Source: Polytrichum commune (taxonomy: Eukaryota > Streptophyta > Polytrichopsida > Polytrichales > Polytrichaceae). From it: 64,000 nt of DNA. The position numbers were made by a program, and so were the translations under genes. Below are positions 14,870-57,143 of this stretch, piece after piece; position 1 is the stretch's first letter, and each line of letters opens with the position of its first letter. The notes below the pieces were generated by a model. It made no database searches, was not told the origin of the DNA, and saw only the letters and a list, made by a program, of their open reading frames with translations. The stretch covers positions 18,199,666 to 18,263,665 of the forward strand of contig OX485807.1 in NCBI GenBank assembly GCA_950295325.1. The letters run 5' to 3'.

Positions 14870-14990
14870 GGGAAGCTAGCATGTGAGCATTGAGCAGTGA
14901 GCAGTGAGCAGTGAGCGGTAACATGTGAGCAGTCAGCAAAAAAATGACCAATTATAGGATTTGAAAAGAAAATATTCCAAAATATTTGGA
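14870..14990. repeat. MULE-1 left TIR with GAGC subterminal repeats
   Basis: GGGAAGCTAGCATGTGAGC, then repeated GAGCAGT units and GAGCGGTAA. The inverted counterpart is at 28330-28424. A second, looser match (AATATTCCAAAATATTTGG) extends the similarity to about 14985. The short repeats are plausible transposase-binding sites (inference). Confidence 0.8.
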
Positions 14991-15261
14991 TTATATATTA
15001 TGAAAATAACATTGTGGGAAAAAAAAATATTGAACTCGGCCCTATTACCATGGAATTCAAGAAGTTTGATGATCCACGGTGATAGGCATTTTATTGACAT
15101 GTCAAGTACGCCATTGAAATGGCGAGCACTTTATTGTGACAAACATCTATTTAGTTGTACCATCAGTTTGTGCTACATACATTTCATATGGATGTACACA
15201 AATATTTCTATATATGTAGAAATGATGAATAATTGCATCCATGTCCTTCACCCCTATGCCA

Positions 15262-18200
15262 CTACACCTTTTCTGCAACACCCGCAAGCTCAAGAAGTCG
15301 CATCACCTCATTGTAGCTAAATGTCGGTGCATGAATGAACTTGTCAGTGGCGTAGTCAACTTTGCACAAATACCTGAACACATAATACAAGTGCTTGCAT
15401 GAAACCCACTGACCCCTCTTTCCCACTGCCAAAGACAATATTTTTGCAAAGTCCGGGCAAGTGCATTGCGGGATATCTGCAATGGAGATAAGGTACGTCT
15501 TATCCTCTTTGGAAACTATGGTTATGATGCATCCATATCCAGGGTATGGAATGGGAGTCACACCAACCACATAGTACCCATCCATATGTAACGCGCTCTC
15601 CCACTTATTCCTATGCTATGATAATGGTGCTGCCATGTTTCGTCGAACTGCCTTGGAAAACCGTGTATTTGGATGCACATCTGGGTTTGGAGGAACACGG
15701 AAATGTGAACGAGGGATGGGGAGGTTTGTCATTGTTCTTAATCGACGACGTGGTGACAATGCCTCTTTCTGTTGGAGTTGAAACCCAGCATCTTCCAATG
15801 CAAACACCTCCTCCCGTGTAAGGTTTGTACCAACCTTCACCGGCCACACCTTAGGGAGATTTGGCCAATCAAACACCCATTTCTTCTTGCTCCCCTTCAC
15901 ACATCGATTAATGTCATCTGCACAAAACCAAAAATTTGTTGGAACGTGGTTGTTGGAACGGTATTCCTTCTTCATGCCTGTGTATGTTGGCGCAGGTGTG
16001 CCATGTGTACTTTTCCCAACTTTAGCCCTACATGGATGTCCAGTATTTGCCTGCAATGCTTGACACTCTTTCTTGGACGGATAAGGCAATCGTGAAATAT
16101 GCCATTGGGATTCATGACACTCTAACTCCAACACATTAGTGGTGTGAGACACCACATTTTCATCATGCTTGAAGGAATCATCTATGCGTGCCCTCTTTCA
16201 CCTTGTATTAGGGTGAGGGATGGAGTAGTTCACTTTGTCAGGACGATGAGAATCATACTCAGATCCAGGTGATAAGTCTAGTTTCCTCTTGGTTGATCCA
16301 AACAACTCAGAGCCCTCCAGTGCACAATTCCTTGTATTAAGATCCTCTGCCCCAGGGTATAACCTCATTGCCTCTGCAAGAAGCTTGGGATCACCGGTGT
16401 GTGCTGCAGCTTTGAGCTTCAATGATGCTTGATCTGGCCTTTTCCCTGAAGAACCCCCTTTAAGCCAAGAACGATAATTTGCGATCTGCATGAATGCGCG
16501 GATCATGTCATCCACGGTTGCCTCGTACAAACATGTCATTTTGTTCCCTGATTGTTGCAACCACTTGTTATGTACTGTTTCTGCTAGGTTGCAAGTTGGC
16601 ATCTCAGCACGTTGATCCAAAGTCAAATCCTGCAATACATATTGGGGATATTTTTAGTTTAAAAATGAACTGACACAACAATTTCATCAGTAATAAAAGA
16701 GGGGCACTTGTATATAAGAAAAACTTACAATGAGCATATGACCTCCCCATTGTCTATATCGATAATGCCAAAATCCCAACCATTCCGACAAGCTGTATAT
16801 GCCCTCCTCGGTGGTTGCCCCTGATGACAACCACCATGCCCGTATTACATGGTATTTGATGTCGGCGTCCTCCAAACTCTTGGCATCCTTGTAATCTTTA
16901 CAAAGTTGTTTGTGTTCATGCTGCAATGAAGGTCGGATGTGTTTTTGTGTTATTTTATCCAAATTAGCAGACCAATGAAAAAAACATGCACGCTCACGAC
17001 CCTCGAGGGGAACAGATGGGTCACCATCCCCGTAAATCTTCCTCACAGCAATCTAATTTGCTTGTGCACTGTCCGCCATGAATCCTTTGAAATTAACATT
17101 GGGAATACCATTCTCCAACATGACAGCATTTAAATTTTCCCAAAAAATGATCTGGGCCCGAGCATCCTCCGATTGCATATCACAACATGCTATTGTGAGA
17201 ACCTTGCAATGTTTGCTATCGTAGACATGACACGCCATTGTAGTCCAGTCTCGCAAACGCTTCACATGGTCAAACATGATCCACGAATTTTTCATGTCTC
17301 CTCCATACTGCATGCGCTTCACCAAATCGACTCCGTTTCCAGCAAGATCCACAGACATCTTAAACACAAAGACCTTATCTTTGGATTGCCCTGGAAACCG
17401 ACTATCATGTACATATTTGAACCCAGAGTGGTTTTTCAATGCTATGATGCTATCCAAGGAACCCATTCCACTGCGAATGAAACGTTTGGAACCCGCCACG
17501 AAGTTCCTACCGTTAGGGGAAGCCAAAGTGGAGAATTTATCCATTACCACCTCCAAGGATGCTCCATGAAGATGGTTTTTTTCTCCTAGGAGAGGGGATT
17601 TGAGGAGGTAATATGCCAAAAATTGTTTACTGGCAGTTATAACAATAGCTGAGTTCTTTGCGGTTGGAGTTTTAGCCACCTCATTTGCCACACACTGATA
17701 AGCCATGTCTAGTGATTCACGACACACTCCAATAGACACAGGGTGGTTATGAACACCCAAGTGGATACAAACACGCGACATGCTTGACGATTGTGAATGG
17801 ACGTATATAATTTTTGCATAGCAAACATCAAGACATATAGGAGCGGCATGACAAACCTTGCATTGAACCTTAGATTTCTCTGGCGGTTCAGTACCAACCA
17901 TGAAAGGAGTGGATGTTGTACCGATCCATTCGGTAGAGTTGCGAACTCCACCATTTCGTGAAAGATACTCACACGAGTCGTTAGGGCATTGGAGATGACC
18001 AACGCATGAAGACCTCCGAAAAGTCAAACCAAATTCATTCTGAATGTTTGTTGTTTTGGTTCTGCACCAGGCATGTCCATCGTAAATCTTGTCCATGCCA
18101 TCCATTGCCTTGCCATAAGCATCTGGAATTCCAGTCTTGACCGGCGGCAAAATGAAAATGACATCCCCATTGAAAGAAGACGGCAAATACTTCACATCCT

Positions 18201-18870
18201 CTATAATAATGTTATCAAAGTCAATATTTGTGAGATCTGATTTGGATCTTCTACGACACTTAGTGATTTTAAGGGCTTCCAATATATGGACATTAGCTAT
18301 GGATGACGTAGGATAAACATGAGGTTTTTTGGAGCGTATGTGCTGTTCAAAAATACTCGAGCTCAGTGGCTTGTAAGGGGAGGATACATTGCCATGCGGA
18401 GTTTGTACAGAAGATGGAGAAGCAAAAGAACATGGAGCTTGAAATGGATAAGATGAAGTCCCTGCAATGTCTACTCCTTGGATGTTATCTTCATCTGAAT
18501 CACTAAGGACCACCACATCATCTACCTCCAATTTAACCTTGCAAAGAGAATGAATTTGCGGTGTGGCCGTGATGGATTCATTTGTCAACAACACTGTGGA
18601 TGCATCCATTTCCAATTCGGACAATCCTATGACTTTATACGAGCCCGCGCCCAATGACCAAAAAGAACCACTATCCACTATTGATTTTTGCATCAAAATT
18701 GTTTCGCACAACTGACCAGTTTCTTGGAATAATTCTTGTTCCACATACATGGTACCAAGACGGAAGCTAAACTTTAGACTAAGCAAATTCTCTTGGACCA
18801 CTACAAAACCATCTGCACCCAAAGGAAGAGTGAAAGGAACAGAACAATCTCCCGCTCGAAGAGAGGCCAT
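15262..18870 (-). pseudogene. MULE-1 SWIM-domain Mutator-type transposase, broken by three in-frame stops
   Basis: DDE/RNase H-fold transposase of the MULE group; cuts and pastes the element by its TIRs. Exons are 18870-16729 and 16629-15262, with a GTAAGT donor and TGCAG acceptor at the same position as in MULE-2. Domains: N-terminal region with VKLE (residues 112-115) and an acidic-flanked VVVLSDSDED SIM (about 119-128); Cys/His zinc-binding blocks (SSCVGHLQCPNDSCEY; CIHLGVHNHPV); the MULE core with DSKHCKVLTIACCD, FMADSAQAN and CFFHW; and a C-terminal SWIM zinc finger (CTCPDF ... VSCKHLYYVF). Premature stops are TAG 17053-17055 (Trp in the sister copy), TGA 16198-16200 and TAG 15616-15618. 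No frameshift seen. The start ATG at 18868-18870 opens MASLRAG. Confidence 0.85.
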
Positions 18871-19338
18871 CGGAAGATAAATAAATTCAATGCAAACTCA
18901 TAAGAATGAAGAATGGAAATGATGCATGACATAGATATTAAATAATATGGACACAAACAAAAATAACAATACATATTTGCAACCTTTGTATATTCATAAC
19001 ACAATTTGAATAGTACTAGTGTATCCATTATTAGAATTCACGTGGCATACATTTTAAAAAACTTAGAAATATTGCAATGACAGCTCAAGTAGGGTTTGAA
19101 ATAATGCAAGGCTCTTATGTACCTTAAATCAGAATGCCACCACATACAATGTATTTATACACAAATTCAAAATGTGTGACGGCCAAAAATAAGCTATGAC
19201 GTATGAAAATGTGAAACCCTAAGATTCCAATAGTTACGGCATGTTGTTGTTGTTGTTGTTGTTGTTATACAACAATCAAACATGAGACGTTCAATTTCTA
19301 TTTGTTTTGCAAATTAATTTCCAATTTGATTTGTGCAA
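18871..19338. promoter_or_regulatory. divergent promoter region of MULE-1
   Basis: 468 bp between the start codons of two head-to-head genes, so it must hold both promoters if the starts are right. It is AT-rich, with a TTTATACACA TATA-like site near 19154 and a (TTG)n run at about 19242-19266. Position is seen; promoter function is inferred. Confidence 0.5.
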
Positions 19339-20045
19339 ATGTTCAATGAAGATGTGTCCGCACATTCACAATTCTCAACTCCCTTGAAGAAACGCAGACG
19401 GAAAGGATCCTCCAAGTATTCGACGCGGAAAGCATTAGAGCGGTCGAGGATGGGGAAGAATTTGACTAGAATTACAAAACACGGCATATGTGCGACCACA
19501 CGAACTCTAACATTTGAAGACGCGGACCTCCTCAAAGATGGGATTGATACGGAACAACCCAACATCTATGCACATGAGGATGTGCAAATTATTAGTGAAA
19601 CAAGGCTTGATATCCAAGACATTGAAGAAGAAGTGGAGTCCCAACCCACACTAGAAGTAATTATTTGACCTAATATCTTCTTATTGTTAATTTCCTAGTC
19701 ATTGCCTAGAGTGGAAGTCGAATCTCATTGGTTATTGAGTTTAGGGTTTGGAATGGGGTGTTGGGAAGGAGAGGGCGGGTTCTCATTCCGTACGGCCTCA
19801 CTCGATGGCAAAGAATGCTAATGGGAGGGGTAGCACCACAATACCTCTCACCGCCACTTCTCCCCGACCACCATTGTTGCCATGCCGCAGATCAATGCGA
19901 AGACCCATCGGAGTGGCCAAGGAGAAACAAGTCCGGAACATACATGAGGTGACATTGGAGTTAGTTGAGGAGGGCCAAATGGAAGAGGACAAGGAGAGAG
20001 AAGATGAAGACAAAGACGACAATGAGGGTAGTCAATTGAGGGAGG

Positions 20046-20096
20046 AGGAGGAAGAAGAAGAAGAAGAAGAAGAAGAAGAAGAAGAAAGTGGAGGAG
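20046..20096 (+). repeat. (GAA/GAG)n purine microsatellite
   Basis: Long GAGGAGGAAGAAGAA run encoding a poly-Glu tract in the putative second exon of the MULE-1 methyltransferase gene. Confidence 0.8.
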
Positions 20097-20317
20097 AGGG
20101 CGAGGAGGACGGCAAGCATCATGCCAAGGAGGATAGCAAGAGAGAGGGGGATGATGGAGAAGCGGACAAAACCTCTCCAATCCAGGTTTTCTCCCCCAAA
20201 CCCTGATTTTACATATAGTTGATGAGATCCTAGTGTTTCCAAGTCCAATAGGTTATATGTTGTCAACTTGAGGGATGGAGGTGTTTATAACCAATTGATT
20301 TTTGATGTACCTGTAGG

Positions 20318-20388
20318 GTGATTGGCCACCAAGTGGCTTAAGTACCATAAAGCAACTTGCTTTTGTCCAATCACCCCCTCCCCCTCCC
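20318..20388. repeat. short foldback (hairpin) element
   Basis: GGGTGATTGG near the left end and CCAATCACCC near the right end form imperfect inverted arms around ACCAAGTGGCTT ... AAGCAACTTGC. Possible mini-MITE. Confidence 0.4.
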
Positions 20389-20466
20389 CCCTCCAATCAG
20401 TGCTCGAGAAATTGTTGGGCAGAACAAAATTCTGCCAAATTTTTGGGTTTAGGGTTATTTAGCAGA

Positions 20467-20608
20467 CCCATTAGTCTTTCGAATTTGAAGCTAGAGGTGT
20501 CAGAAAAGCTACCACAGGGATAACTGGCTTGTGGCAGCCAAGCATTCATAGCGACGTTGCTTTTTTATCCTTCGATGTCGGCTCTTCCTATTACTGTGAA
20601 GCAGAATT
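20467..20608 (+). repeat. 26S rRNA fragment, copy A
   Basis: About 142 nt match plant 26S rRNA domain V next to the peptidyl-transferase centre: AATTTGAAGCTAGAGGTGTC, CCACAGGGATAACTGGCTTG, CATAGCGACGTTGCTTTTT, TCCTTCGATGTCGGCTCTTC and GTGAAGCAGAATT. A few substitutions; no flanking rDNA. It is a dispersed fragment, not a functional rRNA gene. Confidence 0.9.
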
Positions 20609-20639
20609 TCTAGAAAATCAGTAAGCTAGAAATACCATA

Positions 20640-20760
20640 ACCCGTGAAAATAAGGTGATTTGCATTGAAGATATGGTCTGACAATCATGAGATAATTTTC
20701 CAAGATAGACGAGAAGGATTCATGAAGAATGCAAGAACCAACCTAAAAATTTTATGCACA
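20640..20760 (+). repeat. LINE reverse-transcriptase fragment fused behind rRNA copy A
   Basis: GATAATTTTCCAAGATAGAC and GAGAAGGATTCATG parallel the plus-strand LINE at 32455-32500 (CAAGATAGACAAGAAGGATT). In frame it reads NHEIIFQDRREGF against KHQILQDRQEGF of the LINE. The same tail recurs after copies B and C (21815-21885 and 23400-23480). Confidence 0.6.
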
Positions 20761-20766
20761 AACTCT

Positions 20767-20884
20767 AAATGCACATACTTGGCAGAATTCTGCAAGTGCA
20801 GAATTCTGTCAGGTGTACTTTCGTTGCCGAAGGTACACCTGACAGAATTCTGCACTTGCAGAATTCTGCCAAGTATGTGCATTT
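20767..20884. repeat. 118-bp near-perfect inverted repeat with EcoRI-type cores
   Basis: Arms of 57 bp around a 4-nt loop (TTGC) with one mismatch. Each arm holds two AGAATTCTG cores. It separates chimeric units A and B. It would form a long hairpin if transcribed. Confidence 0.9.
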
Positions 20885-20900
20885 AGGGTTATTTAGCAGA

Positions 20901-21000
20901 CCCATTAGTCTTTCGAATCTGAAGCTAGAGGTGTCCGAAAAGCTACCACAGAGATAACTGGCTTGTGGTAGCCAAGCATTCATAGCGACATTGCTTTTTT

Positions 21001-21037
<37 letters not shown>

Positions 21038-21042
21038 GAATT
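20901..21042 (+). repeat. 26S rRNA fragment, copy B
   Basis: Same 142-nt 26S domain V fragment as copy A (434 bp upstream), with slight differences (ACCACAGAGATAACTGG). The unit continues to 21109, is interrupted, then resumes at 21815. Confidence 0.9.
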
Positions 21043-21109
21043 TATACAAAAACAGTAAGCTAGAAATACCATAACCCGTGAAAATAACGTGATTTGCATT
21101 GAAGATATG

Positions 21110-21814
21110 AGAACTTAATGGGCTTAGTCAACATGCATGGGTGAGGTGAGTGGAGTGGGTCCAGCTCACCACTTGCCTTCTTCACCCGGTGACTTCATCG
21201 CCGAGATCATCTTCACACGACGTAAAATTCATGGGGACCTCGGCACTCATTTAGGGAAATAATTGGGCTTGCAAATGCCCGCCACCAGCCGGCTGGGGTA
21301 TATGTGATGCCTTCTACATTGCCAATCACCATCTTTCGTTGTCTCGTCCGAATAAGTTATGGCAGCAGGATGACTACTATCGCTTCAACACGAGAGGAGG
21401 ATTGGACTCCCTGGTGTCCTGTTATGTCCTGTCCTTTAAGTAATTGAAGCACCTGAGTCTCGTGATCTTGTCCATGTCGACAAGACTTCTCGTCACACAA
21501 GCTAAAATCTAACCAAACAATCCCAAAGACGTGCAATCAACTCCTAAAGGCCAAGCTAAACTCCTCCCAAATCCGTCCAATACAACTCACTCGTGTTTCA
21601 AAGCTCGCTTCAGAAAATCCAGCAGTTCTTGTGGTAGATCTGATTGTGTGGATCGGAAGTCTTGTGGAATTAAGGATGTTTTTTTACGCAATTTTCTCGA
21701 CTGTTTGTGTGTTGAAATCGGAGGATTCGAACGTAAGCGTGCATGTTGGTGTCGTCGGGCAGCAGCAGCAGTGACTGCCCGGATGTCTTTACTTGATCCA
21801 CTCAAATGTCTGGT
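21110..21814. other. about 705-bp insertion inside chimeric unit B
   Basis: Unit B reads GAAGATATG up to 21109 and continues GGTCTGACAATC at 21815, whereas unit A is contiguous across this point. The interrupting sequence has no recognised coding content and no clear TSD. Confidence 0.4.
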
Positions 21815-21907
21815 GGTCTGACAATCATGAGATAATTTTCCAAGATAGACGAGAAGGATTCATGAAGATTGCAAGAATCAACCTAAACATTTTATGCACA
21901 AACTTTT

Positions 21908-21961
21908 ATGCACAAACTTGGCAGAATTCTGCAATTGCAGAATTCTGCCAAGTTTGTGCAT
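21908..21961. repeat. 54-bp perfect palindrome with EcoRI-type cores
   Basis: Perfect inverted symmetry about 21934/21935 (GCAA|TTGC), with TTGGCAGAATTCTGC in each arm. Same position in unit B-C as the 118-bp hairpin in A-B. Confidence 0.9.
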
Positions 21962-21979
21962 TTAGAGTTATGGAGCAGA

Positions 21980-22079
21980 TCCATTAGTCTATCGAATTTG
22001 AAGCTAGAGGTGTCCGAAAAGCTACCACAGGGATAACTGGCTTGTGGCAGCCAAGCATTCATAGCGACGTTGCTTTTTT

Positions 22080-22116
<37 letters not shown>

Positions 22117-22121
22117 GAATT
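21980..22121 (+). repeat. 26S rRNA fragment, copy C
   Basis: Third copy: GAATTTGAAGCTAGAGGTGT, CCACAGGGATAACTGGCTTG and TCCTTCGATGTCGGCTCTTC. The unit runs to 22194 and resumes at 23400. Confidence 0.9.
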
Positions 22122-22194
22122 TATACAAAAACAGTAAGCTAGAAATACCATAACCTGTGAAAATAACGTGATTTGCATTGAAGATATGGTCTGA

Positions 22195-23399
22195 TAAGGC
22201 TTTACTCGATGGAGTAAAGCTGATGAATAGCTGAGTTGGGAAATGATTCTTCCGTACCTTGTCTCTCACGATTTATGAGCTGGAGCATGATCAACTTACT
22301 CTTGTACAGTCTATATTCCATAATCATAACCATAAACTGGTGGCCTCTTCAAATTGGTAGTCTCGTGGGGGGTTCCCTCACCCCCACGAATTAGTTTCTG
22401 GTGTCGCATTTATATTAACTGCTTATGAATAACTTTGTCATTGTCCATGCTTACTGGGGGAGCCTCAAATTGCTGGGTAGGATGCGTGACACTCAAGAAA
22501 TTTGTTGGAAATAATTCAATGAGCTGTGGAAAGGAGCTTTCTGTGAAGTCCTTGATCAGGTCTTTAATCAAAGCTTCAACACACCACCTGTACATTAATG
22601 GTTATGTATATTCAAGGCATTATGATAATATGTAAAGTTAGTCCTTATTTAACTTCAGGCGATTTTCTTGAATGTGTTAAATTACTAATTTTTGCGTGAA
22701 CCATTTGTCCCATTTCCTTAATCAATTGTTACAAACCCACAATGATATTCTAGGTCTTTGTATGTAATTCTCTTTGAAACCGTTAGGGTCAGGAAGGAAA
22801 TACAGTCTGACAATGTTGTGTCTTGAATCGCTATTGATGTTGGCAATGTTTTTGTCTGCATCTGGATCCTTCATGCATCTCATTACCTGCAGCATGAATC
22901 TTTGCTTTGATGCAATCATTAGCTGTGGAAGACATTTTGTGATGATTTCACATGCTTGAGAAGAAACTGTAGTCAATTGCAGTTCACTAGAGCTTGGAAT
23001 GTTCAACACTGTGTTTTAGTTGTGGTCACATATCTTGCACGTGCTACTCTGGGCTTAGCTGGTACTTCTGCCTGTCCACAACCTTGAGGTTCTTGAGCTT
23101 GTGTTGCTAGGTATATTAGTATATGCTTGTGGTCTTCTGGTTCAAATTGGGCCACAAAACCAATTTGCATTTAACAATTTCGGTTTATTCCTAATTTCCA
23201 AACAGCATGTGGTGATGGTGAATAGGGAATTATTGGACACTTCTGAGTTCAAAAGCTTAGAATTCAACATTTCTTACTTCAGAGGAGAATTGATCACAAG
23301 TTTCTCCAGGATGGGACGTTTGGATACATACCATGCATGCGTACTTGATAATAACTTACCGTTGCTGCTCGATTGTTGTATTTTATGTGTTGTTGTATC
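22195..23399. mobile_element. 1.2-kb insertion in unit C, flanked by a 19-bp direct repeat
   Basis: CATTGAAGATATGGTCTGA occurs at 22176-22194 and 23400-23418, exactly flanking 1,205 bp that interrupt the unit. A 19-bp TSD is the size made by target-primed retroposition. The minus strand has exon-like ORFs at 22595-22410 and 23009-22722 of unknown family; no poly(A) was seen. A captured gene fragment is possible. Confidence 0.5.
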
Positions 23400-26300: not shown

Positions 26301-27834
26301 TCAACATTGGAAGTATTGCCTCGGACCTCTGCTCAATTTATGTTGGAAAACACTTCCGTTCTTAAGGTTGTTACTGGAGAATCTCCCGGTGTGTTGTTAA
26401 AGACAAACGAATTTATCAAACAAGTAAGCATTTTGCCAACATTTATATATTTTCACGTTGTCAATTTTGAAAAAAAAATTTAAGTTTGATTATAAGCGAT
26501 ATTGATAATTTTTTATTGTTTGCAACAGTTTGACGATTTGAGAACTGCAAATGTGTCCAATGACACATGCCCGCATCGAGGTTTTGATCTGTTAATTGCA
26601 GACTTACCTGAAGGTCTCCCTGTGCCGCATATTTCTTTTCCTCCTTCAGTTGTTCCAGAATGGAATAAGCATAACACCACCGAAATTGAAGCAATATTTG
26701 AATTTGCATTTTCGTTCCTTCACGACAATGCATTCATTTTGGTGTTCATTTCGGAATGTAAACATGTACGTCAAGATGTTCGTACATATTCGGCTACTTA
26801 CGGCTTCACTTTATTGAAAGATTGGTGGGGTGTAAATGGCATGAAATTGTGCTCTGGTATCGATATTTCTGCCACAGTAAGTACAATTTTTCTTCTCAAC
26901 ATTTTCAATGGATTTTGAATTTATGCAAAATCAATTTTTTTAAAAAACTAATATGTGTATGTTGTTTGTTTGTGGCAGTCACGCAAGTTCCGAATCTTGT
27001 TATATTGCCGTGAGAAGAATGCACATGTGAAAGTATCATTCAACAAAAATCTTGAGTTCGAAAAGCAAGGTGTATGTGTTGGTGAAGACGATGTTTATTT
27101 TAATTACACAACTGAAAAAACTCAACTAATTAATGGTTTTGTGCCTTGGCGAGGAGCGCGTGAAAAACATCATATCTTAATGCAGATGTTTATTGAGGCT
27201 TTATGTAAGCCTGGAGCGGTAGTCATTGATGTCACAGCTTCTTCCGGTGGGTTTACAATCTTAATATCTACCATCAACATTCAATTTTTCTACCTTAATG
27301 ATTCAATAAACTTTCTTTCATCCAATGCATTGTAATGCTTATAAAACATATACTGAATTTTTTTTTTTAATTTTCATTTCAGGTGCCTCTGTCCACGCAT
27401 GTCGTAAAAGTGGACGCCATCTTGTTGCTTATGAGGCAGATGATCTAATCTTCAATAAGATACTTCAACCGTTTCGCGAGCTTTCATCTCAAAACCCCGT
27501 AGTTGGTCAATCATCACAACCACCTTCATTGGAGGAGGAGGATGAACCTCCTCGCAAAGTAGCAAGGAAATCACGTTTGAGTACGTGAGTTTTGCCCAAC
27601 CTATTGGAATTTATGATTATTTGTGAACTTGTATATCGTCAAAGTTACTAACCCTCATTGTGTATATCTAAATGTAGTGTTGGCAAGATGATGGAGCAAT
27701 TGTCATCTCCTCCGAGGTCGTTGTTGCTTCGTGTATATGCGGAGAGCATTGCTCTTGCACAAGCGGCCACATCAACACACGTCGGCCAAAGTCTCGCAAG
27801 TTTAATTCCGATGTGGAGATGTTCTTTCATTTAG

Positions 27835-28424
27835 AGGCATCAGAGGACAATGGAGGCATTTAGATAGTTGAAAATATCATCCACCATATGTTGGATTGGA
27901 TTGGATTGGATTGGATATGGTTGGTTTGAAATGTGAAATGACATTGAATTTGGCATTCCAATAAAACAAAACAAAAATTAAATCCACTCTTTGCATTATT
28001 TTTGAATTACCACAACTAGTGGAGACTGATTCTATGTGAGCAAATTCCTCTTATTCATAAACGATATGCACAAATAATTTAGTCCCCCCCCCTCCCAAAC
28101 GCCTCCATCAATTCATTTCTCAATACTTGAAATGTGTTTGCATTTGTTGTGTTGAATCTAGCAACAATGTTGAGATTCATCATGAAATTCTCATGCTAAT
28201 CTTGTGGTTATTGATTTTGAAAGTGGAAACGTAATAAATTCATTAGGTTCGTTGCATTTTGTTTGCACTACCCACTTCTAATATTATAGAGAAATACATA
28301 ATCAATTATGCCAAAATACCACGGTTATAGGATAATATTGGGTGTAATTCCAAATATTTTTTCCACCCTCCCTTCTCAAAACTTACCGCTCATTGCTCAC
28401 CGCTCACATGATAGCACCCCCCCC
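27835..28424. other. MULE-1 right terminal region
   Basis: Non-coding sequence from the methyltransferase stop codon to the element end. Contains a (TTGGA)n run at about 27893-27916, a poly-C run near 28083, and the right TIR (about 28330-28424) with TTACCGCTCATTGCTCACCG and CTCACATGATAGCACC. Confidence 0.7.
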
Positions 28425-28435
28425 GGCGATAATGA
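28425..28435. repeat. right 11-bp TSD of MULE-1
   Basis: GGCGATAATGA, identical to 14859-14869. Confidence 0.85.
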
Positions 28436-29424: not shown

Positions 29425-29426
29425 TA

Positions 29427-37600: not shown

Positions 37601-37799
37601 AAACATAAAGAAAAGGCCGAACCTCCAACATGCAACCTTCTTCAAATGTGTATCCTCCAACATCCAACCTTCTTGAAGTGTGGAACCTCCAAAATCCCGA
37701 GCTTATTGTTAAGTGGCCGAGAGCTAGCATTAAGGTCCATTTATTATGGGGTTGGTAGTATTCCAATGTGAAAAGGGTGAACAAGGATGTGACCATCAT

Positions 37800-47600: not shown

Positions 47601-50600
47601 ATAACAAAATCAAAATCTGGTCCAAGTGGCCGAATCCTCCTACCTCTCGGAACCGAGGCCCTTAGTGTATACATATTATCAACCACAAATAAAGTAAAAA
47701 ATCTGGTATATGTGCCGAATCTTTCTACCTCTCGGAACCGAGACCCTTAGTCTAGACACATTATAAACCTTATAACAAAATCAAAATTTGGTCCAACTGG
47801 CCGAATCCTCCTACCTCTCGGAACCGAGACCTTGTATCTATACACATTGTCAACCTTATAACAAATCAAAATCTGGTCCAAGTTTCCGAATCCTCCTACC
47901 TCTCGGAACCGAGACCCTTAGTGTAGACACATTATCAACCTTATAACAAAATCAAAATCTGGTCCAAGTGGCCGAATCCTCCTACCTCTCGGAACCGAGA
48001 CCCTTAGTCTAGACACATTATAAACCTTATAACAAAATCAAAATCTGGTCCAAGTGGCCGAATCCTCCTACCTCTCGGAACTGAGACCCTTAGTGTATAC
48101 ACATTATCAACCACAAATAAAGTCAAAAATCTGGTATATGTGCCGAATCCTCCTACCTCTCGGAACCGAGACCATTAGTCTAGACACATTATCAACCTTA
48201 TAACAAAATCAAAATTTGGTCCAACTGGCCGAATCCTCCTACCTCTCGGAACCGAGACCCTTAGTGTATACATATTGTCAACCACAAATAAAGTCAAAAA
48301 TCTGGTATATGTGCCGAATCCTCCTACCTCTCGGAACCGAGACCCTTAGCCCACTCACAATATCAACCACACACAAATTCAAAAATCTGGTCCAAGTGGC
48401 CGAATCCTCCTACCTCTCGGAACCGAGACCCTTAGTGTATACATATTATCAAACACAAATAAAGTCAAAAATCAGGTATATGTGCTGAATCCTTCTACCT
48501 CTCGGAACCGAGACCCTTAGTCTAGACACCTTATCAACCTTATAACAAAATCAAAATCTGGTCCAAGTGGCCGAAACCTCCTACCTCTCGGAACCAAGAC
48601 CCTTAGTCTAGACACCTTATCAACCTTATAACAAAATCAAAATCTGGTCCAAGTGGTCGAATCCTCCTACCTCTCGGAACCGAGACCCTTAGTCTAGACA
48701 CCTTATCAACCTTATAACAAAATCAAAATCGGGTCTAACTGGCCGAATCCTACTACCTCTCGGAACCGAGAGCCTGTATCTATACACATTATCAACCTTA
48801 TAACAAAATCAAAATCTGGTCCAAGTAGCCAAATCCTCCTACCTCTCGGAACTGAGATACTTAGCCCACTCACAATATCAACCACACACAAATTCAAAAA
48901 TCTGGTCCAAGTGGCCGAATCCTCCTACCTCTCGGAACTGAGACCCTTAGTGTATACACATTATCAACCACAAATAAAGTCAAAAATCTGGTATATGTGC
49001 CGAATCATCCTACCTCTCGGAACCGAGACCCTTAGTCTAGACACATTATAAACCTTATAACAAAATCAAAATCTGGTCCAAGTGGCCGAATCCTCCTACC
49101 TCTCGGAACCGAGACCCTGTATCTATACACATTGTCAACCTTATAACAAATCAAAATCTGGTCCAAGTTTCCGAATCCTCCTACCTTTCGGAACCGAGAC
49201 CCTTAGTCTAGACACATTATCAACTTTATAACAAAATCAAAATCTGGTCCAACTAGCCGAATCCTCCTACCTCTCGGAACCGAGACCCTTAGTCTAGACA
49301 CCTTATCAACCTTATAACAAAATCAAAATCTGGTCCAAGTGGCCGAATCCTCCTACCTCTCAGAACCGAGACCCTTAGTCTAGACACCTTATCAACCTTA
49401 TAACAAAATCAAAATCTGGTCCAAGTGGCCGAATCCTCCTACCTCTCGGAACCGAGACCCTTAGTCTAGACACCTTATCAACCTTATAACAAAATCAAAA
49501 TCTGGTCCAAGTGGCCGAATCCTCCTACCTCTCGGAACCGAGACCCTTAGTCTAGACACCTTATCAACCTTATAACAAAATCAAAATCTGGTCCAACTGG
49601 CCGAATCCTCCTACCTCTCGGAACCGAGACCCTTAGTCTAGACACCTTATCAACCCTATAACAAAATCAAAATCTGGTCCAAGTGGCCGAATCCTCCTAC
49701 CTCTCGGAACCAAGACCCTTAGTCTAGACACCTTATCAACCTTATAACAAAATCAAAATCTGGTCCAAGTGGCCGAATCCTCCTACCTCTCGGAACTGAG
49801 ACCCTTAGTGTATACACATTATCAACCACAAATAAAGTCAAAAATCTGGTATATGTGCCGAATCCTCCTACCTCTCGGAACCGAGACCCTTAGCCCACTC
49901 ACAATATCAACCACACACAAATTCAAGAATCTAGTCCAAGTGGCCGAATCCTCTTACCTCTCGGAACTGAGACCCTTAGTGTATACACATTATCAACCAC
50001 AAATAAAGTCAAAAATCTGGTATATGTGCCGAATCCTCCTACCTCTCGGAACCGAGACCCTTAGCCCACTCACAATATCAACCACACACAAATTCAAGAA
50101 TCTGGTCCAAGTGGCCGAATCCTCCTACCTCTCGGAACTGAGACCCTTAGTGTATACACATTATCAACCACAAATAAAGTCAAAAATCTGGTACATGTGC
50201 CGAATCATCCTACCTCTCGGAACCGAGACCCTTAGCCCACTCACAATATCAACCACACACAAATTCAAGAATCTAGTCCAAGTGGCCGAATCCTCCTACC
50301 TCTCGGAACTGAGACCCTTAGTGTATACACATTATCAACCACAAATAAAGTCAAAAATCTGGTATATGTGCCGAATCCTCCTACCTCTCGGAACCGAGAC
50401 CCTAAACCCACTCACAATATCAACCACACACAAATTCAAAATCTGGTCGAACTGGCAGAATCCTCCTACCTCTCGGAACCGAGACCCTATATCTATACAC
50501 ATTATCTACCTTATCACAAATCAAAATCTGGGTCAAGTTTCCGAATCCTCCTACCTCTCGGAACCGAGACCCTAAACCCACTCACAATATCAACCACACA

Positions 50601-51981
50601 CAAATTCAAAATCTGGTCGAACTGGCAGAATCCTCCTACCTCTCGGAACCGAGACCCTATATCTATACACATTATCTACCTTATCACAAATCAAAATCTG
50701 GGTCAAGTTTCCGAATCCTCCTACCTCTCGGAACCGAGACCCTTCACCCACTCACAATATCAACCACAAACCATTTCAAAAATCTGGGATATGTGCCGAA
50801 TCCTCCTACCTCTCGGAACCGTTACCCTTACTCTATACACCCCCTCACCCACAAACAAATTCAAAAATCTTGTCCAAGTTGCCGAGTCCTCTTACCTCTC
50901 AGATCCGAGACCCTTATTCTAGACACCCCTCACCCATACACAAATTCAAAAATCTGTTTCACGTGGCCGAATGTTCCTACCTCTCGGAACCGACACTTAG
51001 GAGTACCCACATTATCAACCCAACATAACTTCAAAATCTGGTTTAAGTGCCGAATCCACACATCCAGCCAAAACTTCAAAATCTGGTGTAAAGGTTGAAT
51101 CCATACCTCCAAAAGAACCTTCAAAATCTGTTGTGAAGGCCGAATGCTCTCTATCTAAGAAAACCCCACAATCGGTGTATGTGTCCAAACCCTCTAAGCC
51201 CTCCGAATCGTTACCCTTAGTCTCGACACTATCTTATCCAAAAGTCTTGTCTAAGTGGCCGAGTCCTCGGAAACACATCCTCGGTATCCCCTAGTTCTAA
51301 GTGGCCCAAGACTATAGCCTCTCGGACCCTAAACCCTTCCCACATGATCATCCCACTATACTTTTAAACCATGTCAAATATACCTAAACCCAGGGGCCCT
51401 TTCACCTTAACACCGACATTAAACCATTCCGAAATGTGACCATGAACTACCCTCTCGGAACCGAGAGATACTCCTTAATAGAAATATACAACATGTCTGC
51501 TTTGTGACCTTTACACACATATACATTATTTCCTGAAGGTGGCCTGGATTTCAACAATAACGCAAACATTCATGTCGTGTTTCCATTCCACTCAATCTTC
51601 AAATACCCATTATTCATATATCCACAACATCAATCTTACTATAAGAATGGAATCATCTCTTGTCTCCTCGCGAGACCCGCTTTGATTGGAACAGTTGAGA
51701 TGCTCGCTCTCTGCCATAGATGGTGCGGCTGAATCACTGTCCTCCCGGTCTTCCTCTATCGCCTCGAGATTTAATTGTCTTTTCGAAGATCCTCTCTTGC
51801 TCTCTCCACCTATGTTTTGCAAGTCTGTTGGGGTGCCTCTTCCCTCTATGTATGATTCCTCCTTCTTCAGTTCTCTCCGTCTCCTCTGTTTCGAATTGCT
51901 GAAACTCGTGCCTCCTTTTCGCTTCTTTCGCTTCCTTCCTGTATCTATTGTGGAATCTGTATTGTGCTCTGGTTCCTTCAT
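38690..51981 (-). CDS. MULE-2 ParB-domain/N6-N4 DNA methyltransferase fusion, intact, 12 exons
   Basis: Predicted exons (minus): 51981-51640, 46477-46361, 46258-45681, 45598-45403, 43905-43708, 43616-43398, 43317-43079, 42987-42312, 42219-41875, 39558-39300, 39178-38981 and 38877-38690. All have AG/GT borders and matching phases, giving about 1,184 aa without a stop. N-terminal basic NLS-like RKRKKRKGG; ParB-like domain in exon 3 (CRLHCLPLVRPI; FVWEGNHRLTAWFRHI); a middle helical region; a low-complexity linker with KGKGKGRK and PRKRK; then the methyltransferase: motif-IV position IDLLFADVPENL (exon 9), the conserved PWRGAREKRP (exon 10) and motif-I position VFDWQCGLGGSIIAC with QRHIVALDSD. 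The motif-IV tetrapeptide is DVPE rather than D/NPPY/F. Predicted nuclear; methylates DNA if active. Start is the only in-frame ATG before the NLS. Introns 1, 4 and 9 hold the palindromic minisatellite. Confidence 0.8.
39590..41830. repeat. palindromic minisatellite array 1 (intron 9)
   Basis: About 26 units of about 85 bp, each with CTCTCGGAACCGAGACC, then a variable part (TAGTCTAGACACATTATCAA or alternatives) and ATCTGGTCCAAGTGGCCGAA. Core TCTCGGAACCGAGA is a 6-bp inverted repeat with AA between the arms. Confidence 0.95.
43955..45320. repeat. palindromic minisatellite array 2 (intron 4)
   Basis: About 16 units of the same family, distinguished by CCTACTACCTCTCGG and AGCCCATTCACAATATC variants, so this array expanded independently of the other two. 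Confidence 0.95.
46500..51290. repeat. palindromic minisatellite array 3 (intron 1)
   Basis: About 55 units; 47000-50800 is highly regular (about 85 bp, mostly near-identical) with degenerate edges. Local higher-order repeats (for example 170-bp dimers at 49780-50400) show recent amplification. Confidence 0.95.
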
Positions 51982-52200
51982 GTGTGCGTCACAGATCCCC
52001 TCTGCTTCCCTTTTCCTGCTCTCTACTCTCTCAGCATCCCTTTCCTTCGCTTCCAAAAGGACATTTTCCCAACCCTCTCTGACCTATATAGTGCCACTGT
52101 TCAAGGTTTAGGGTTTACAATTTTTGGTCTTTGTGACTACCCTACCCTTTTTGATCTATTTTCATATTCCCCCCTCTCTTTGTCCGTGGCTTCGTCGTCC
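51982..52200. promoter_or_regulatory. divergent promoter region of MULE-2
   Basis: About 220 bp between the two opposed start codons. A symmetrical CTATATAG at about 52084-52091 could serve as a TATA box for either strand, though it is better spaced for the plus-strand transposase. Function inferred from position. Confidence 0.45.
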
Positions 52201-55200
52201 ATGGCTTCCTCGTCCACCGTGCCCTCTGTATCCGAAATGGTTGAGCTCCGTGCCAATGGCCTCGGAATCCCTATTCTTTTTCCCGTCGATGCCAACGGTG
52301 TTGCATCTGTCTCTTCTCTTCACCTTAGTATCAGATTTTCTTTGCAAGATAGTACAATATGGGTCGAACGCGAGATTTATGATATTACTACTTCCATGTT
52401 GTCATTGACCGTCTGTGAGAATCCTAGGGTTGCCGACAACAGATCCTCAACGTGGGAACTCTGCTCTGGTAAATACAGGGTGTACGGACTCCCAGGTCCT
52501 TGCACGAATGGATCCACGGATTTCCGTACCCCTCCCCATTCCTCTGCCTCCACTTTCAACATTCCTCCCCTCGTCAAAGTTAAGATTGAACCCGGTGTTC
52601 ACACTGTCATCCATCTTTCCGATTCCTCCGATGGTGATGAGCCCCCCGTATCCACTCCCATTCGCGAGCCATCCCCCTCCTCCCTCCATTCCGCCGCTGT
52701 TACCCCTCCTCTTTTGTCTCCTCTTCCTCCCTTTCCAACCAAACCCCCCTATTCCATTCTTCAATGTCTACGTTCTCTTGCTTCCATGCCCGGTAGGAAG
52801 AACATCCTCAAGAAGCTAGATTATGACACCTTACAAATTCAAGAGGTGAATTTCCTGCCGCCACGCTTTGATGGTGATCTCATGTTTGTCCTACCCCCAC
52901 TCGGTCTTTCTTCTTCTCATAAGAAGGCCCAATCCATGGACGGCATGGACAAACGCTATGACGGCCATGTTTGGACTAAGACCCAGACCACCAATATCAC
53001 CAATGTCATGGGCCTTGTTTTTCGCTCCTCCAGTTGTGTTGGCCACCTCGAATGCCAAAATCCTCAGTGCGATTACCTGCAACGTGCTCATCGGACTTCC
53101 CTCGTCAATGATACTGATTTCGACGGTTTCACCAAGGATCCCTTCCCCGTTGGTGGTCCCTTGCCTTTGGGATCCACTCTAATGTGCCGGATCTGTAAGG
53201 AGCCTCCCAAATGCATTGCACCATGTCACGCCAAAATCTTCTACGTCCACGGCAATACCACCACTCAGCATGCCTGTATCCATCTCGGCAACCATCATCA
53301 TCCCGTCAAGGTTGGCAATTGCAGAGATAGCCAACAGCGCATCGACGCCCTCATCGAGGAGCTCGTCGAGCGAACGCCCCAAGCCACGCATAGCAAAATC
53401 GTCCTTGAAGCCAGCAAGGACCTTGTGGGTGAGTTCCTCCTCCGCAATGATACTGATCCTCATAAACTCCTTTCTTTGGAAGAACTTGAGCCCGTTTTTG
53501 ATCGTTGCAAGGAGTTGCATTCCCCCCACCTCCGAAACAAGGTTACCACTTTCAAATACTTACGTAGATTGGGGGTTATGGATGGCATCGCCAAGCTTCG
53601 AGGTGTCAGCACCTGGGCCTATGTCCAGCGGAATCAATTCCCAGGCCAGGGTGACGATACGGACAAGGTTTTCGTTTTCAAGATGTCCGAGGTCGGCCCT
53701 GGTAGTGGGGTCGACTTGGTTAAGCGCATGCAACCTGGCGGGGATCTCGAGCACGCTTGGATCATGTCCGACCATGTCAAACGCGTCGCCAAGTGGACCA
53801 CCATGGCCTGCCACGTATACGACGGTACCTACCAGCACGTCATGACCATCGCTTGCTGCGACTTCCAATCCGAGGACAAGGATGCTCAAGTTCTTTTCTG
53901 GCATAACCTCAACCACGTCATGGCCCGCCATGGATTCCCGAAGCCCCACTTCAAAGGCTTCATGGCAGACAATGCCCAAGCCAATTGGAATGCCGTCAGG
54001 ATTGTTTACGGGTCCGGAGACCCCAAGGTTCCCATCGATGGGCGTGAGAGAACCTGCTACTTCCATTGGACCCAGTCTTTGGAGAAACACACCAAGCTCT
54101 ATATCAAGCATGACTTGCAAGACCAACACAAACGTCTCTGCCTGCAGTATCGCGACGCATCCTCTATGCTCGAGGCGGAAACGAGGTACCTCGCCATCAA
54201 GGCCTAGTGGGCTTCGTCTAACTGCACCTCCGAGGAGGGGCTCAAACACCTTCAGCTTTGGCTGGCCTTCTGGCACTTTCGTTATCCACAATGGGGTGGC
54301 TTCATGGAATTGGTGCGTCTTTAGTGTTATTCCTCTTTGTTTTCTGTTTTTTTTTTTTTTTCAAGCTTTTCTTATTTCTTGCACACCCTTTCCATTGCGC
54401 AGGAGAAAATCATGACCGCCGAGGAATTTGCACAAATGCCCAATTGCAACCTTGCCGAGTCCATTCACAACAAATGGCTCCAAGCTTCCGGCAACAAAGG
54501 TGGCGATCTTTACGTGGCCACTGTGGATGACTATATTCAAGCCTTCCTCCAAGTTGTGGCGTACCATCAGTTTCTTAAGGGTGGCGTTGGGGGCGATGGC
54601 CCTAGCAAAGAAGAACTCAAGCTTCGTGCTGCTCAACGTCGTGCTCAACGTACTGGTGACCTCGCTGTCCTTCAAAAGGTTCTTCTCGACATGCCTGGCG
54701 GTGAGGAATTTTGTACTCGTAGTCCCCACCTTGAAGGTGCCGAAGTCTTTGGCTCCCAGAAACGCAAGCCTGACACACCCATTGGTGCTGATGATGAAAC
54801 CCACCGCCCCGACACCCTCAACTTCTCTCGCCCTCGTGTCGCTCAGAGAACCACAAGATCTCACGCTTCACCTTTGCCTACCATCGTCGAGGAGTCCTCC
54901 CCGACAGTGATCGAGGTTCCACCACCCCCTCCTACTGGATTGGATTTCTGTCGTGTCACTGCCGTACAAGAATCCAATGTGGACGAGAAGCTCTGGCATA
55001 TTGCTCGCGTTCCTTACAATTCCTCCAAAGCATGTTGGGCCATGCATACTGTCACCAAGAAGAAATGCACTGCCAAAATCGTCTCCAACTCCAAGAGCAC
55101 CCCTGCACCGGCATACGTTGGAGTTTGGAACTATTACAAATTCACAACACCTAAGGTCGAGAAGTTTTTTTTTTGCCCGGACGACATTGAACGTTGTGTC

Positions 55201-55859
55201 AAAGGATCCCGTCGCAAGTGGGTCGACAAATTCTCCGCAGACCAAGAAGGACCTCCAATCCCGCCCGTGTGGCCTGTCAAAATTGGTACCAACCTCACTC
55301 GTCCGGAGATCCTTAAGCTTGAGAACGCCGGCTTTCAGCTCCCACAAAAAGAGCGCATCACGCCCACTCGCCTCTTCACCACATCCACTCCTCCACTCGA
55401 CCTCTCTGGAGTGGACGTTCCTGCCAACCCAGACTCGTATCCTTCTTCCAGACAGTCCAAGACTACGAGACGGTCTGCCACCGCACCATCAGCAAAACAA
55501 ATGCAGATGGTCGCATCTGCCCGAGCTATGGAAGGGACCATTTTGAAGGTGACCATGATTCCACGACCTGGATTTGGTTGCGTTATCATGTTGCAGTCCA
55601 AACCTGCACCTACTCAATCAATTACCAACTCACAGTCAGTTCCCTGCCCGAGTGTAATTGCCCAGCCTTCAAGGATATGATATCAAAGTTTGGCCGTAAA
55701 CGAAATTCGTTCCTGCATTGTAAGCACCTCTACTTCATATTTGTCAAGGTCTCTAATGTAGACCCCGAAGTTGACTTGTTCATTCATGCCCCTACCTTTA
55801 GCTTCAATGAGGTCAAACTCATCCTCGAAGGGGGCCTCTTGACACAGTCTACTTCCTAG
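52201..55859 (+). pseudogene. MULE-2 SWIM-domain Mutator-type transposase, one stop and one frameshift
   Basis: Exons 52201-54312 and 54403-55859. Same architecture as the MULE-1 protein: VKIE (residues 127-130) and the SIM-like TVIHLSDSSDGDE (about 135-147); zinc-binding SSCVGHLECQNPQCDY and CIHLGNHHHPV; transposase core with YDGTYQHVMTIACCD, FMADNAQANW and CYFHW; basic/aromatic FFCPDDIERCVKGSRRKW; C-terminal SWIM finger ECNCPAF ... LHCKHLYFIF. Lesions: TAG at 54205-54207 where the sister copy has Trp (IRAWW), and a frameshift between about 55590 and 55625 just before the SWIM finger. Coding sequence is GC-rich at third positions, unlike the AT-rich MULE-1 genes. Starts MASSSTVPSV; upstream in-frame sequence reads as 5' UTR. 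Confidence 0.87.
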
Positions 55860-56076
55860 AATTACTCTCATCCTAGCACTACATTTTGTCCTCATGGATG
55901 TGGTCAGTTCTGGACCGAATGTGAACTCATAATTGATTGCTATAATAAATATAATCTCATAGATTATTTTTATTCCCTTCAAAATTTTGTATTACAATAT
56001 TCAAATGTGTCATGTGTCTCTCTCCCGGTTGAACATTTCATTTTCAATTTTAAGGTGTTACCTATCTCTATCAAAT

Positions 56077-56589
56077 CTACTTCCGTTTCGCCAACCTTCT
56101 AGGTGTTTCATCGTCCCTTCTTGATGGAGGTAGACCCGGTCGAAGCAAATCAATGTATGACACCGTTTTATCCCTCATTCGATCCTTCAATGGACGAGGA
56201 TGCGGCAACAATCCTCTCATCCTCTCGCGAAATGACAAAGACCTCGAAGATTCGCCTACTACCTTCACCTCATCCTCCCCGTTCGTCGTCTTGTCTTCAT
56301 TCAAATCAGCGTCTTCATTCATATCAACGTCCTTCTCCTGCACATCCGCTCGCGTTTTATTTTTCTTTGCATATTGTTTCTGCTCCTCCTGCATCCTCCA
56401 CCTCCAAGCTTGTGTGGACTGCGAAAATGGAGTGAGTTCGTAGTCATCACTACATTGCTTTCCAGCACCTTTGTCATGTTCCGGCGATGGATTAAAAGGA
56501 ACATGGGGATCTCCTAGACTCCTAATCTCCTTCTCCCATCCTAGGCCAGCGAACGTGTCTTTCTCCTCTCCCATTGTGTCCCTAAACAC
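56077..56589 (-). CDS. hypothetical 170-aa charged protein near the MULE-2 right end
   Basis: Convergent with the transposase, ending in PRRLAKRK at 56077-56100. Contains FAGLGWEKEIRSLGDPHVPF, an acidic stretch (DVDMNEDADLNEDK) and SLSFRERMRGLLPHPRPLKD. Looks disordered and nuclear. No family recognised and no counterpart in MULE-1. Could be captured host sequence or an accessory protein; coding status unproven. Confidence 0.4.
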   Translation of the reverse strand: MFRDTMGEEKDTFAGLGWEKEIRSLGDPHVPFNPSPEHDKGAGKQCSDDYELTPFSQSTQAWRWRMQEEQKQYAKKNKTRADVQEKDVDMNEDADLNEDKTTNGEDEVKVVGESSRSLSFRERMRGLLPHPRPLKDRMRDKTVSYIDLLRPGLPPSRRDDETPRRLAKRK

Positions 56590-57079
56590 TCTACATCCGT
56601 ATTGGGTACGAGTCTACCTTATGTCCTTATATATTTTGAGCTGAAGATAATCTCTTCAAACAATAATTGTGCGAGTCCAAGCTCTATAGTTGACTCACAC
56701 ATAGGACAAATATAAAAGTGATGGAATAAAAAACTAAGCAAGGTGGTCGCCATTTGTATTTTCTTTGACTAAATCTTCAATTATACCAAACTCGATAAAA
56801 TCATTTTAAAATCTTCTTTTTTGGAATCACCCTTGGTTTAAATCATATACTTATCTATTTTATCATAATTCTTATATCATTTTTGCACTTCCCGTATTCT
56901 AAATTTAACGACTACATTTCAAATTCAGATCATTTTCATTTAATGTTGGACCTATCCATTCCACAAAAATAGGTCATACATTTTTGGTATTTTTGGTAAA
57001 TTCTGGAATATTCCAGGTATATTCTTTTCTATTTAAATTTTTGCTAAATTTAGTCTGACAAGTTTGCTATTTTTTCTTC

Positions 57080-57143
57080 ATCTCCGCTCTCCGCTCTCCA
57101 AATCTCTGCTCTCCGCTCTACGCTCACATAGCTGTGTCGTCCC
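57080..57143. repeat. MULE-2 right TIR
   Basis: CTCCGCTCTCCGCTCTCCAA ... CTCTACGCTCACATAGC ... GTCCC, inverted relative to 35152-35215. Confidence 0.85.

What the first reader, a model, noticed from the sequence alone, without database searches (positions are those of the whole stretch)
14870..57143. MULE lineage that encodes a ParB-like/N6-N4 DNA methyltransferase alongside its SWIM transposase
Seen: two TSD- and TIR-bounded elements (14870-28424 and 35152-57143) each carry a SWIM-type MULE transposase head-to-head with a multi-exon gene encoding basic NLS, GNHR-containing ParB-like domain, and a permuted methyltransferase fold. The protein pairs are clearly diverged, yet order, orientation and intron positions are kept. 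Known: ParB domains fused to N6/N4 methyltransferases occur in phages and bacterial mobile elements; MULEs normally carry only mudrA-like and sometimes mudrB-like genes. Inference: an ancestral MULE captured a phage- or bacteria-type methyltransferase and kept it, perhaps to mark its own ends, escape host silencing or promote excision. I know of no description of this architecture.
Basis: partly seen in the sequence, partly recalled or inferred. Interest (0 to 1): 0.95.

Follow-up and report, generated by a model that had tools for sequence, protein, structure and literature searches.

The report
Transposon carrying a methylase and palindromes
A large family of jumping genes, apparently from a plant, carries its own DNA-methylase-like gene, and many copies hold repeated mirror-image sequences inside that gene that look like docking sites for the protein, as if the jumping gene tags itself to escape silencing.

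Summary
Two TSD/TIR-bounded elements each carry a SWIM/DDE transposase head-to-head with a multi-exon gene for a GNHR (ParB-like) plus permuted amino-methyltransferase protein (37% identical, shared introns). It is a transposon family: 150 scored ParB-exon matches in this 408-Mb genome; 12 of 20 sampled loci have a transposase within 9.9 kb, always on the opposite strand; two further complete elements; dN/dS 0.08-0.32. Not wholly new: PMC12477816 reports a ParB-like plus N4C/N6A methylase gene opposite the transposase in an Ectocarpus Sola1 element and cites green and red algal relatives. At 12 of 20 loci the stretch 5' of the ParB exon holds repeated copies, mostly in tandem arrays of differing units, of one palindrome, TCGGNNCCGA, whose arms follow the protein subfamily. 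In the 12 loci with a transposase, 175 copies lie on the ParB-MTase side, none beyond. Best reading: self-recognition for anti-silencing, like Arabidopsis VANDAL/VANC. Binding and methylation are inferred. Weak points: motif IV is D[VLI]PE, not DPPY; the ParB call rests on a motif; genome-wide background of the palindrome unmeasured.

The parts
14870..28424 (.). Element 1 (decayed copy), TSD GGCGATAATGA at 14859-14869 and 28425-28435, TIR GGGAAGCTAGCATGTGAGC.../GGGGGGGGTGCTATCATGTGAGC...
15265..18870 (-). Element 1 transposase, SWIM CxC...CxH near the C-terminus; three in-frame stops (by eye)
   Evidence: catalytic layout from homologues
19339..27831 (+). Element 1 ParB-like/methyltransferase gene (exon 1 NLS 19339-19656; exon 3 23972-24502; exons 4-8 24597-26423; exon 9 26529-26876; exon 10 26979-27248; exon 11 27385-27585; exon 12 27679-27831); two frameshifts
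24356..24367 (+). GNHR box (ParB-like) of element 1
26601..26615 (+). Motif IV equivalent, DLPEG in place of DPPY, element 1
35152..57143 (.). Element 2, TSD TTGATGTCA at 35143-35151 and 57144-57152; TIR GGGAAACTTAGTAGTGTGAGCGTAGAGC.../GGGACGACACAGCTATGTGAGCGTAGAGC...
52201..55856 (+). Element 2 transposase: D541, D590, C619xxH622 (residue numbers of the 52201 ORF), later NxAE, SWIM CNC...CKH; stop at 54205, frameshift near 55.6 kb
38693..51981 (-). Element 2 ParB-like/methyltransferase gene, 12 modelled exons, open; first in-frame Met 51981
45680..46258 (-). Exon 3, GNHR ParB-like domain, element 2 (GNHR at 45826-45815)
38976..42219 (-). Exons 9-11, permuted amino-methyltransferase domain, element 2 (DVPEN at 42150-42136; motif I DWQCGLG at end of exon 10)
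47022..51057 (+). Intron 1 tandem array, 85-bp unit x about 47, with TCTCGGAACCGAGA palindromes
43960..45290 (+). Intron 4 tandem array, 85-bp unit x about 16, same palindrome
39596..41770 (+). Intron 9 tandem array, 85-bp unit x about 25, same palindrome
38157..38182 (.). Isolated palindrome with 12-bp perfect arms, GGACCCTCTCGG AA CCGAGAGGGTCC, just 3' of the last modelled exon; further isolated copies in intron 1 at 46549, 46719, 51453

Best explanation
A divergent, MULE-like DNA transposon family carries a divergently transcribed ParB-like/amino-methyltransferase gene as a selected accessory function. Its protein recognises a bipartite palindrome (TCGGNNCCGA plus subfamily-specific outer arms) repeated in arrays inside its own gene. 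From those sites it modifies or occupies the element's DNA, so that copies stay expressed or escape host silencing. This is the logic of VANDAL/VANC, with a bacterial-type fold. Shown: the gene pair, the family, selection, the arrays, and the match between palindrome variant and protein subfamily in the sample. Inferred: which protein binds, that it methylates, and that the effect is anti-silencing.
For: Gene pair and boundaries; two more complete elements among five loci extended. 150 scored ParB-exon matches of 1287 candidates. Opposite-strand transposase at 12 of 20 sampled loci. dN/dS 0.08-0.32 in 10 of 12 comparisons, the other two saturated. Palindrome with arms of at least 6: 3 or more copies at 12 of 20 loci, at least one at 16 of 20; none in 28.5 kb of window flanks, in element 1, or in 52084-57143 of element 2. 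In the 12 loci with a transposase 175 of 175 copies lie between ParB exon and transposase (60.8 kb), 0 in the 58.0 kb beyond. 24 of 42 arrays, in 8 of 14 unit families, carry the core, arms 6-12 bp. Among all 256 four-base arms with a 2-base spacer TCGG ranks first: 14 of 20 loci against 4 for the next. TCTCGG type at 9 of 14 loci with 76-89% ParB identity and 0 of 6 with 63-66%; CCTCGG type at 6 of 6 and 1 of 14. Precedent for TE-encoded factors with tandem target motifs in introns: PMC5735166 (passages).
Against: No binding or methylation data. Motif IV is D[VLI]PE in all four copies read, so catalysis is uncertain. 8 of 20 loci have fewer than 3 full palindromes and 4 (L013, L015, L016, L024) have none; L014-L016 hold arrays that keep one arm only. 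Of five stretches read 3' of the ParB exon only one (L033) has the palindrome. In element 2's own array another block (AAATCAAAATCTGG) is as conserved as the palindrome, which ranks 4th of 85 windows, and that unit's palindrome is not exceptional by itself (shuffle p 0.077). Element 1 lacks it. The 20 loci were picked by hand along the 150 listed, not at random, and the genome-wide count of the palindrome did not complete.
Confidence: 0.5

Rival explanations
1. The methyltransferase half is catalytically dead; the protein is only a DNA-binding anti-silencing or regulatory factor that uses the old fold to recognise sites.
For: Motif IV is DLPEG/DVPEN/DIPEN/DIPEN instead of DPPY in 4 of 4 copies read.
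Against: Motif IV is conserved in its new form rather than decaying, and motif I is kept. L034 against L035, exons 3-11 pooled, gives dN/dS 0.26 (the methyltransferase exons were not tested apart, and L035 has one stop). The best PDB hits are annotated DNA amino-methyltransferases.
Confidence: 0.3
2. The palindromes are sites for the transposase or a host transcription factor or architectural protein, unrelated to the ParB-MTase.
For: No direct link to the protein was measured. Palindromic dimer sites are common for host factors (general knowledge).
Against: In the 12 loci with a transposase none lies on the transposase side; GAGCGGA repeats next to the TIRs are better transposase-site candidates. 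Both arms change together with ParB subfamily, unlike what a fixed host factor would impose.
Confidence: 0.2
3. Neutral intronic satellites in which palindromes arise through hairpin-driven repeat expansion.
For: 18 of the 42 arrays lack the core, and one (L020) has a different long palindrome.
Against: The same core recurs in 8 of 14 unit families that do not align over 40 bp or more and leads all 256 alternatives; the centre dinucleotide varies while arms are kept.
Confidence: 0.1
4. Host gene captured by chance (Pack-MULE-like cargo without function).
For: Element 1 also holds LSU rRNA-derived pieces, so the lineage can carry foreign sequence.
Against: 150 scored copies, divergent layout in 12 of 12 loci with a transposase, dN/dS well below 1.
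Confidence: 0.02

Closest known systems
Sola1-1_Ec32 of Ectocarpus (PMC12477816, passages read) and the green and red algal cases it cites (Iyer 2011; Petroll 2025; texts not held)
   Same: Giant DNA transposon (21.5 kb) with a 1104-aa protein of ParB-like plus N4C/N6A methyltransferase domains, transcribed opposite to the transposase; self-marking proposed there
   Different: Sola superfamily in a brown alga; here a SWIM/DD-CxxH transposase with 9-11 bp TSDs in a genome with plant-like flanking genes, with arrays of a shared palindrome. Homology to the Ectocarpus protein could not be tested (sequence not held)
VANDAL MULEs with VANC anti-silencing protein, Arabidopsis (PMC5735166, abstract and passages read)
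   Same: Transposon-encoded accessory protein; short motifs in tandem repeats in introns and other non-coding parts; motifs differ between related families
   Different: Motifs in the passages read (YAGTATTAY; AGTTGTCC/AC) are not described as palindromes; here the accessory protein has ParB-like and methyltransferase features. No sequence comparison with VANC was made
DNMT-encoding retrotransposons of dinoflagellates and charophytes (PMC5890265, abstract read)
   Same: Transposon-borne DNA methyltransferase; self-methylation proposed
   Different: C5-cytosine enzymes in retrotransposons; here an amino-methyltransferase-like domain in a DNA transposon
Bacterial ParABS and ParB-methylase fusions of phages (recalled, no call)
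   Same: GNHR-type box; clusters of palindromic sites recognised by the protein as in parS
   Different: Profile search does not establish ParB homology; introns, basic N-terminus and eukaryotic transposon setting

Membership tests
MULE superfamily | 8-11 bp TSD and terminal inverted repeats | tested here: met
   11, 9, 10 and 9 bp in four elements (the last read by eye from the printed flanks)
MULE superfamily | DDE core with CxxH between second D and E, SWIM finger (recalled definition) | tested here: met
   D541 in 63, D590 in 65, C619 and H622 in 63 of 67 aligned rows; E and SWIM seen by eye in el1, el2 and P0008
MULE superfamily | Profile match to known MULE transposases | tested here: not met
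   No MULE, Mutator-DBD or SWIM model among families matched at E<=1 by the 37 members scanned, nor by the pieces; hence 'MULE-like' only
ParB/Srx-type domain | G-x-H-R box (recalled definition) | tested here: met
   G in 104, N in 106, H in 103, R in 93 of 122 aligned rows, rows with gaps included in the 122
ParB/Srx-type domain | Profile or fold match | tested here: inconclusive
   ParBc not among Pfam matches of 46 members, no PDB hit, no NCBIfam ParB, one of 46 hits a PHROG ParB at E 0.052; model pLDDT 42.7
Permuted amino (N6A/N4C) methyltransferase | Motif I at the C-terminal side, motif IV at the N-terminal side | tested here: met
   PF01555 positions 164-214 of 221 (el1), DpnA 171-223 at E 1.7e-4; motif IV placed by eye
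Permuted amino (N6A/N4C) methyltransferase | Catalytic motif (D/N/S)PP(Y/F/W) | tested here: not met
   DLPEG, DVPEN, DIPEN, DIPEN
Transposon ParB-methylase accessory class (Ectocarpus type) | ParB-like then methylase, in a TE, opposite strand to transposase | tested here: met
   compared with the text; ParB part with the caveat above
Transposon ParB-methylase accessory class (Ectocarpus type) | Common descent with the Ectocarpus protein | not testable with these tools
   sequence not held
VANC-like anti-silencing system | Family-specific motifs in non-coding tandem repeats of the element | tested here: met
   met at 12 of 20 sampled loci and in element 2
VANC-like anti-silencing system | Protein binds motifs and removes silencing marks | not testable with these tools
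   needs ChIP or EMSA and methylomes

The most novel reading that the evidence does not exclude
A eukaryotic transposon family has built a parS-like self-recognition system: a ParB-like methyltransferase and its dyad sites, kept as fast-changing intronic arrays and co-evolving by subfamily, which loads on the element's own DNA and methylates or shields it against host silencing.
Probability: 0.42. Interest if true: 0.92.

Novelty: new variant of a known kind. Interest (0 to 1): 0.8.

Why it matters
In the one text I could read on TE-borne ParB-methylases (PMC12477816) the self-marking role is a proposal from domains alone. This family adds a candidate other half: a repeated, dyad-symmetric, subfamily-matched site in the element itself, with many copies of the gene under purifying selection. 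That makes it directly testable whether transposons use adenine or N4-cytosine marks, or targeted binding, to evade silencing.

Tried and rejected
Spliced 938-aa protein as database query: no relative, probably because the database holds exon-sized open frames; exon 3 alone found 161. No relative by the ParB exon or transposase in IMG/VR or by the long alignment in GTDB contigs. ParB part in phages and plasmids: nothing but two hits at E 8. The element 1 methyltransferase piece matched 354 phage records at E<=10, best 8e-4, many annotated as DNA methylases. AlphaFold of exon 3 and of the transposase with two-sequence alignments was unusable, so no fold search was run. Profile searches of ParB exon and transposase against the PDB: nothing. 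The idea that the palindrome marks every element was rejected: element 1 and 4 of 20 sampled loci lack it. The genome-wide count of the palindrome, a transposase census and an exon 9 search did not complete.
Full report
What is there. Element 1 (14870-28424) and element 2 (35152-57143) are bounded by GGG-starting inverted repeats and 11- and 9-bp target site duplications. Each holds two divergent genes. The transposase shows D541 and D590 followed by CxxH and a later NxAE, and a CxC...CxH SWIM finger; the D-D-CxxH positions are kept in 63-65 of 67 aligned rows. No Pfam MULE model recognises it, so I call it MULE-like. The partner gene has a basic first exon, an exon with a GNHR box, a middle region, and exons 9-11 with a permuted amino-methyltransferase domain. 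The two proteins are 37% identical over 953 columns with exon ends at equivalent places for exons 3-11.

Domain identity. The methyltransferase half is supported in element 1 by PF01555 (E 1.3e-4) and PHROG DNA methyltransferases (5.6e-8), in element 2 by a PHROG methyltransferase at 0.004 with no Pfam hit, and with a four-copy profile by DpnA in the PDB (1.7e-4), ahead of N4-cytosine enzymes at 0.06-0.4. The equivalent of DPPY reads DLPEG, DVPEN, DIPEN, DIPEN: conserved but non-canonical, so activity is open. The ParB assignment rests on the GNHR box, conserved through 122 aligned rows; profiles gave one weak ParB hit (E 0.052) and the structure model was poor.

It is a transposon family. The window lies on a 52.9-Mb contig of a 407.8-Mb assembly; exon 3 has 150 scored matches of 1287 candidates, 62-100% identical, about 109 of the 150 without an internal stop (my count of the list; element 1's own exon is not among them). 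In the protein database 66 transposase and 161 ParB-exon relatives were found, and two contig lengths (674632 and 318782) occur in both lists. I took 20 of the listed places, spread by hand along the ranking, and read 9.9 kb 5' of the exon: 12 of 20 carry a transposase, 12 of 12 on the opposite strand, 2.3-7.0 kb away; in 8 none was found within 9.9 kb. Of five loci also read on the 3' side, two gave complete elements: TSD AGCTAATAGC, 12.8 kb, and TSD CTCGGGTGG, about 16.7 kb, read by eye from the flanks; in the other three (C1:49k, C3:36M, C7:39M) both ends were not found. Exons of ten copies give dN/dS 0.08-0.32 in ten of twelve comparisons, which are not independent; two had saturated dS. 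One of the ten copies (L035) has a stop. dS of 0.021-0.045 between some copies means recent spread.

The palindrome arrays. Element 2's introns 1, 4 and 9 hold about 90 tandem 85-bp units, and TCTCGGAACCGAGA occurs 62 times exactly in the window, all between 38163 and 51466. At the sampled loci arrays often have other unit sequences: 42 arrays (40 from the loci, 2 from element 2) fall into 14 families by alignments of 40 bp or more, and 24 arrays in 8 families carry TCGGNNCCGA with arms of 6-12 bp; unit-shuffle p runs from below 0.004 to 0.077. 12 of 20 loci hold at least 3 copies with arms of 6 or more (7-33 copies), 16 of 20 at least one; dinucleotide shuffles gave at most 1. In the 12 loci with a transposase all 175 copies lie between ParB exon and transposase; none in the 58.0 kb beyond. 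In element 2 that interval is introns 1 and 2; elsewhere I did not map exons 1 and 2. TCGG is first of 256 possible arms, 14 of 20 loci against 4 for the next and 244 copies against 48. Outer arms follow the protein: TCTCGG/CCGAGA at 9 of 14 loci with 76-89% ParB identity and none of 6 with 63-66%; CCTCGG/CCGAGG at 6 of 6 and 1 of 14. One locus (L027) has TGTCGG/CCGACA as well. Both arms changing together with a free centre is what a dimer site does.

Against. L013, L015, L016 and L024 have no full site; L014-L016 have arrays with only one arm; element 1 has none; of five 3' stretches only L033 has any. In element 2's array a second block is equally conserved. A single unit's palindrome can be chance (p 0.077 for element 2). 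The genome-wide background was not measured.

Mechanism. Arabidopsis VANC proteins, encoded by VANDAL elements, bind short motifs that form tandem repeats in introns and other non-coding parts of their own element, with motifs differing between families, and cause loss of methylation across the element (PMC5735166, abstract and passages). The layout here is similar. I infer that the ParB-MTase is the targeted factor; whether it methylates, shields or recruits is unknown. GAGCGGA repeats next to the TIRs are the better candidates for transposase binding.

Novelty. PMC12477816 (passages) describes a ParB-like plus N4C/N6A methyltransferase gene opposite the transposase in a 21.5-kb Sola1 element and cites green and red algal cases, so the protein class is known. 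Ten full-text searches of the held open-access library listed no title on a MULE-like carrier or on such dyad arrays, but some lists were cut at 10-20 rows and only a few papers were opened; Iyer 2011 and Petroll 2025 could not be read. Translated flanks look like plant purple acid phosphatase, amino-acid transporter and cellulose-synthase-like genes (by eye), and the seven contigs whose lengths I saw above 42 Mb sum to about 406 Mb, so a land plant with seven chromosomes, perhaps a moss, is my guess.

Noticed in passing
window 20519-20698, 20961-21002, 22040-22081: Pieces of large-subunit rRNA (LSU_rRNA_eukarya, best 65.9 bits, E 2.3e-14) lie repeated inside element 1's big intron, with a long hairpin at 20778-20873; possibly an rRNA-derived repeat element or captured fragment.
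   Followed up: partly
window 35535-36179 (-): Open frame of 215 aa at the methyltransferase end of element 2; no identity or counterpart sought.
   Followed up: no
window 36311-37587: A second tandem array (117/156-bp units) near element 2's end that lacks the palindrome core.
   Followed up: no
window 30620-33850 and 57840-59630: Broken LINE-like reverse transcriptase and RNase H reading frames flank element 2 (by eye; no search).
   Followed up: no
L014, L015, L016: Loci 86% identical to element 2 in the ParB exon have 75-bp arrays that keep CTCTCGGAA but not the opposite arm: loss of dyad or a half-site variant.
   Followed up: partly
L020:7070-8045: 78-bp array with a different long palindrome, GGTTTGGGTCGATCGACCCAAACC, in a ParB-exon locus.
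   Followed up: no
window 39596-51057 and L011-L019: A second shared block, AAATCTGGTC, recurs in arrays of several loci with the TCTCGG-type or half-site arrays, absent from the CCTCGG-type loci apart from one reverse copy in L025.
   Followed up: partly
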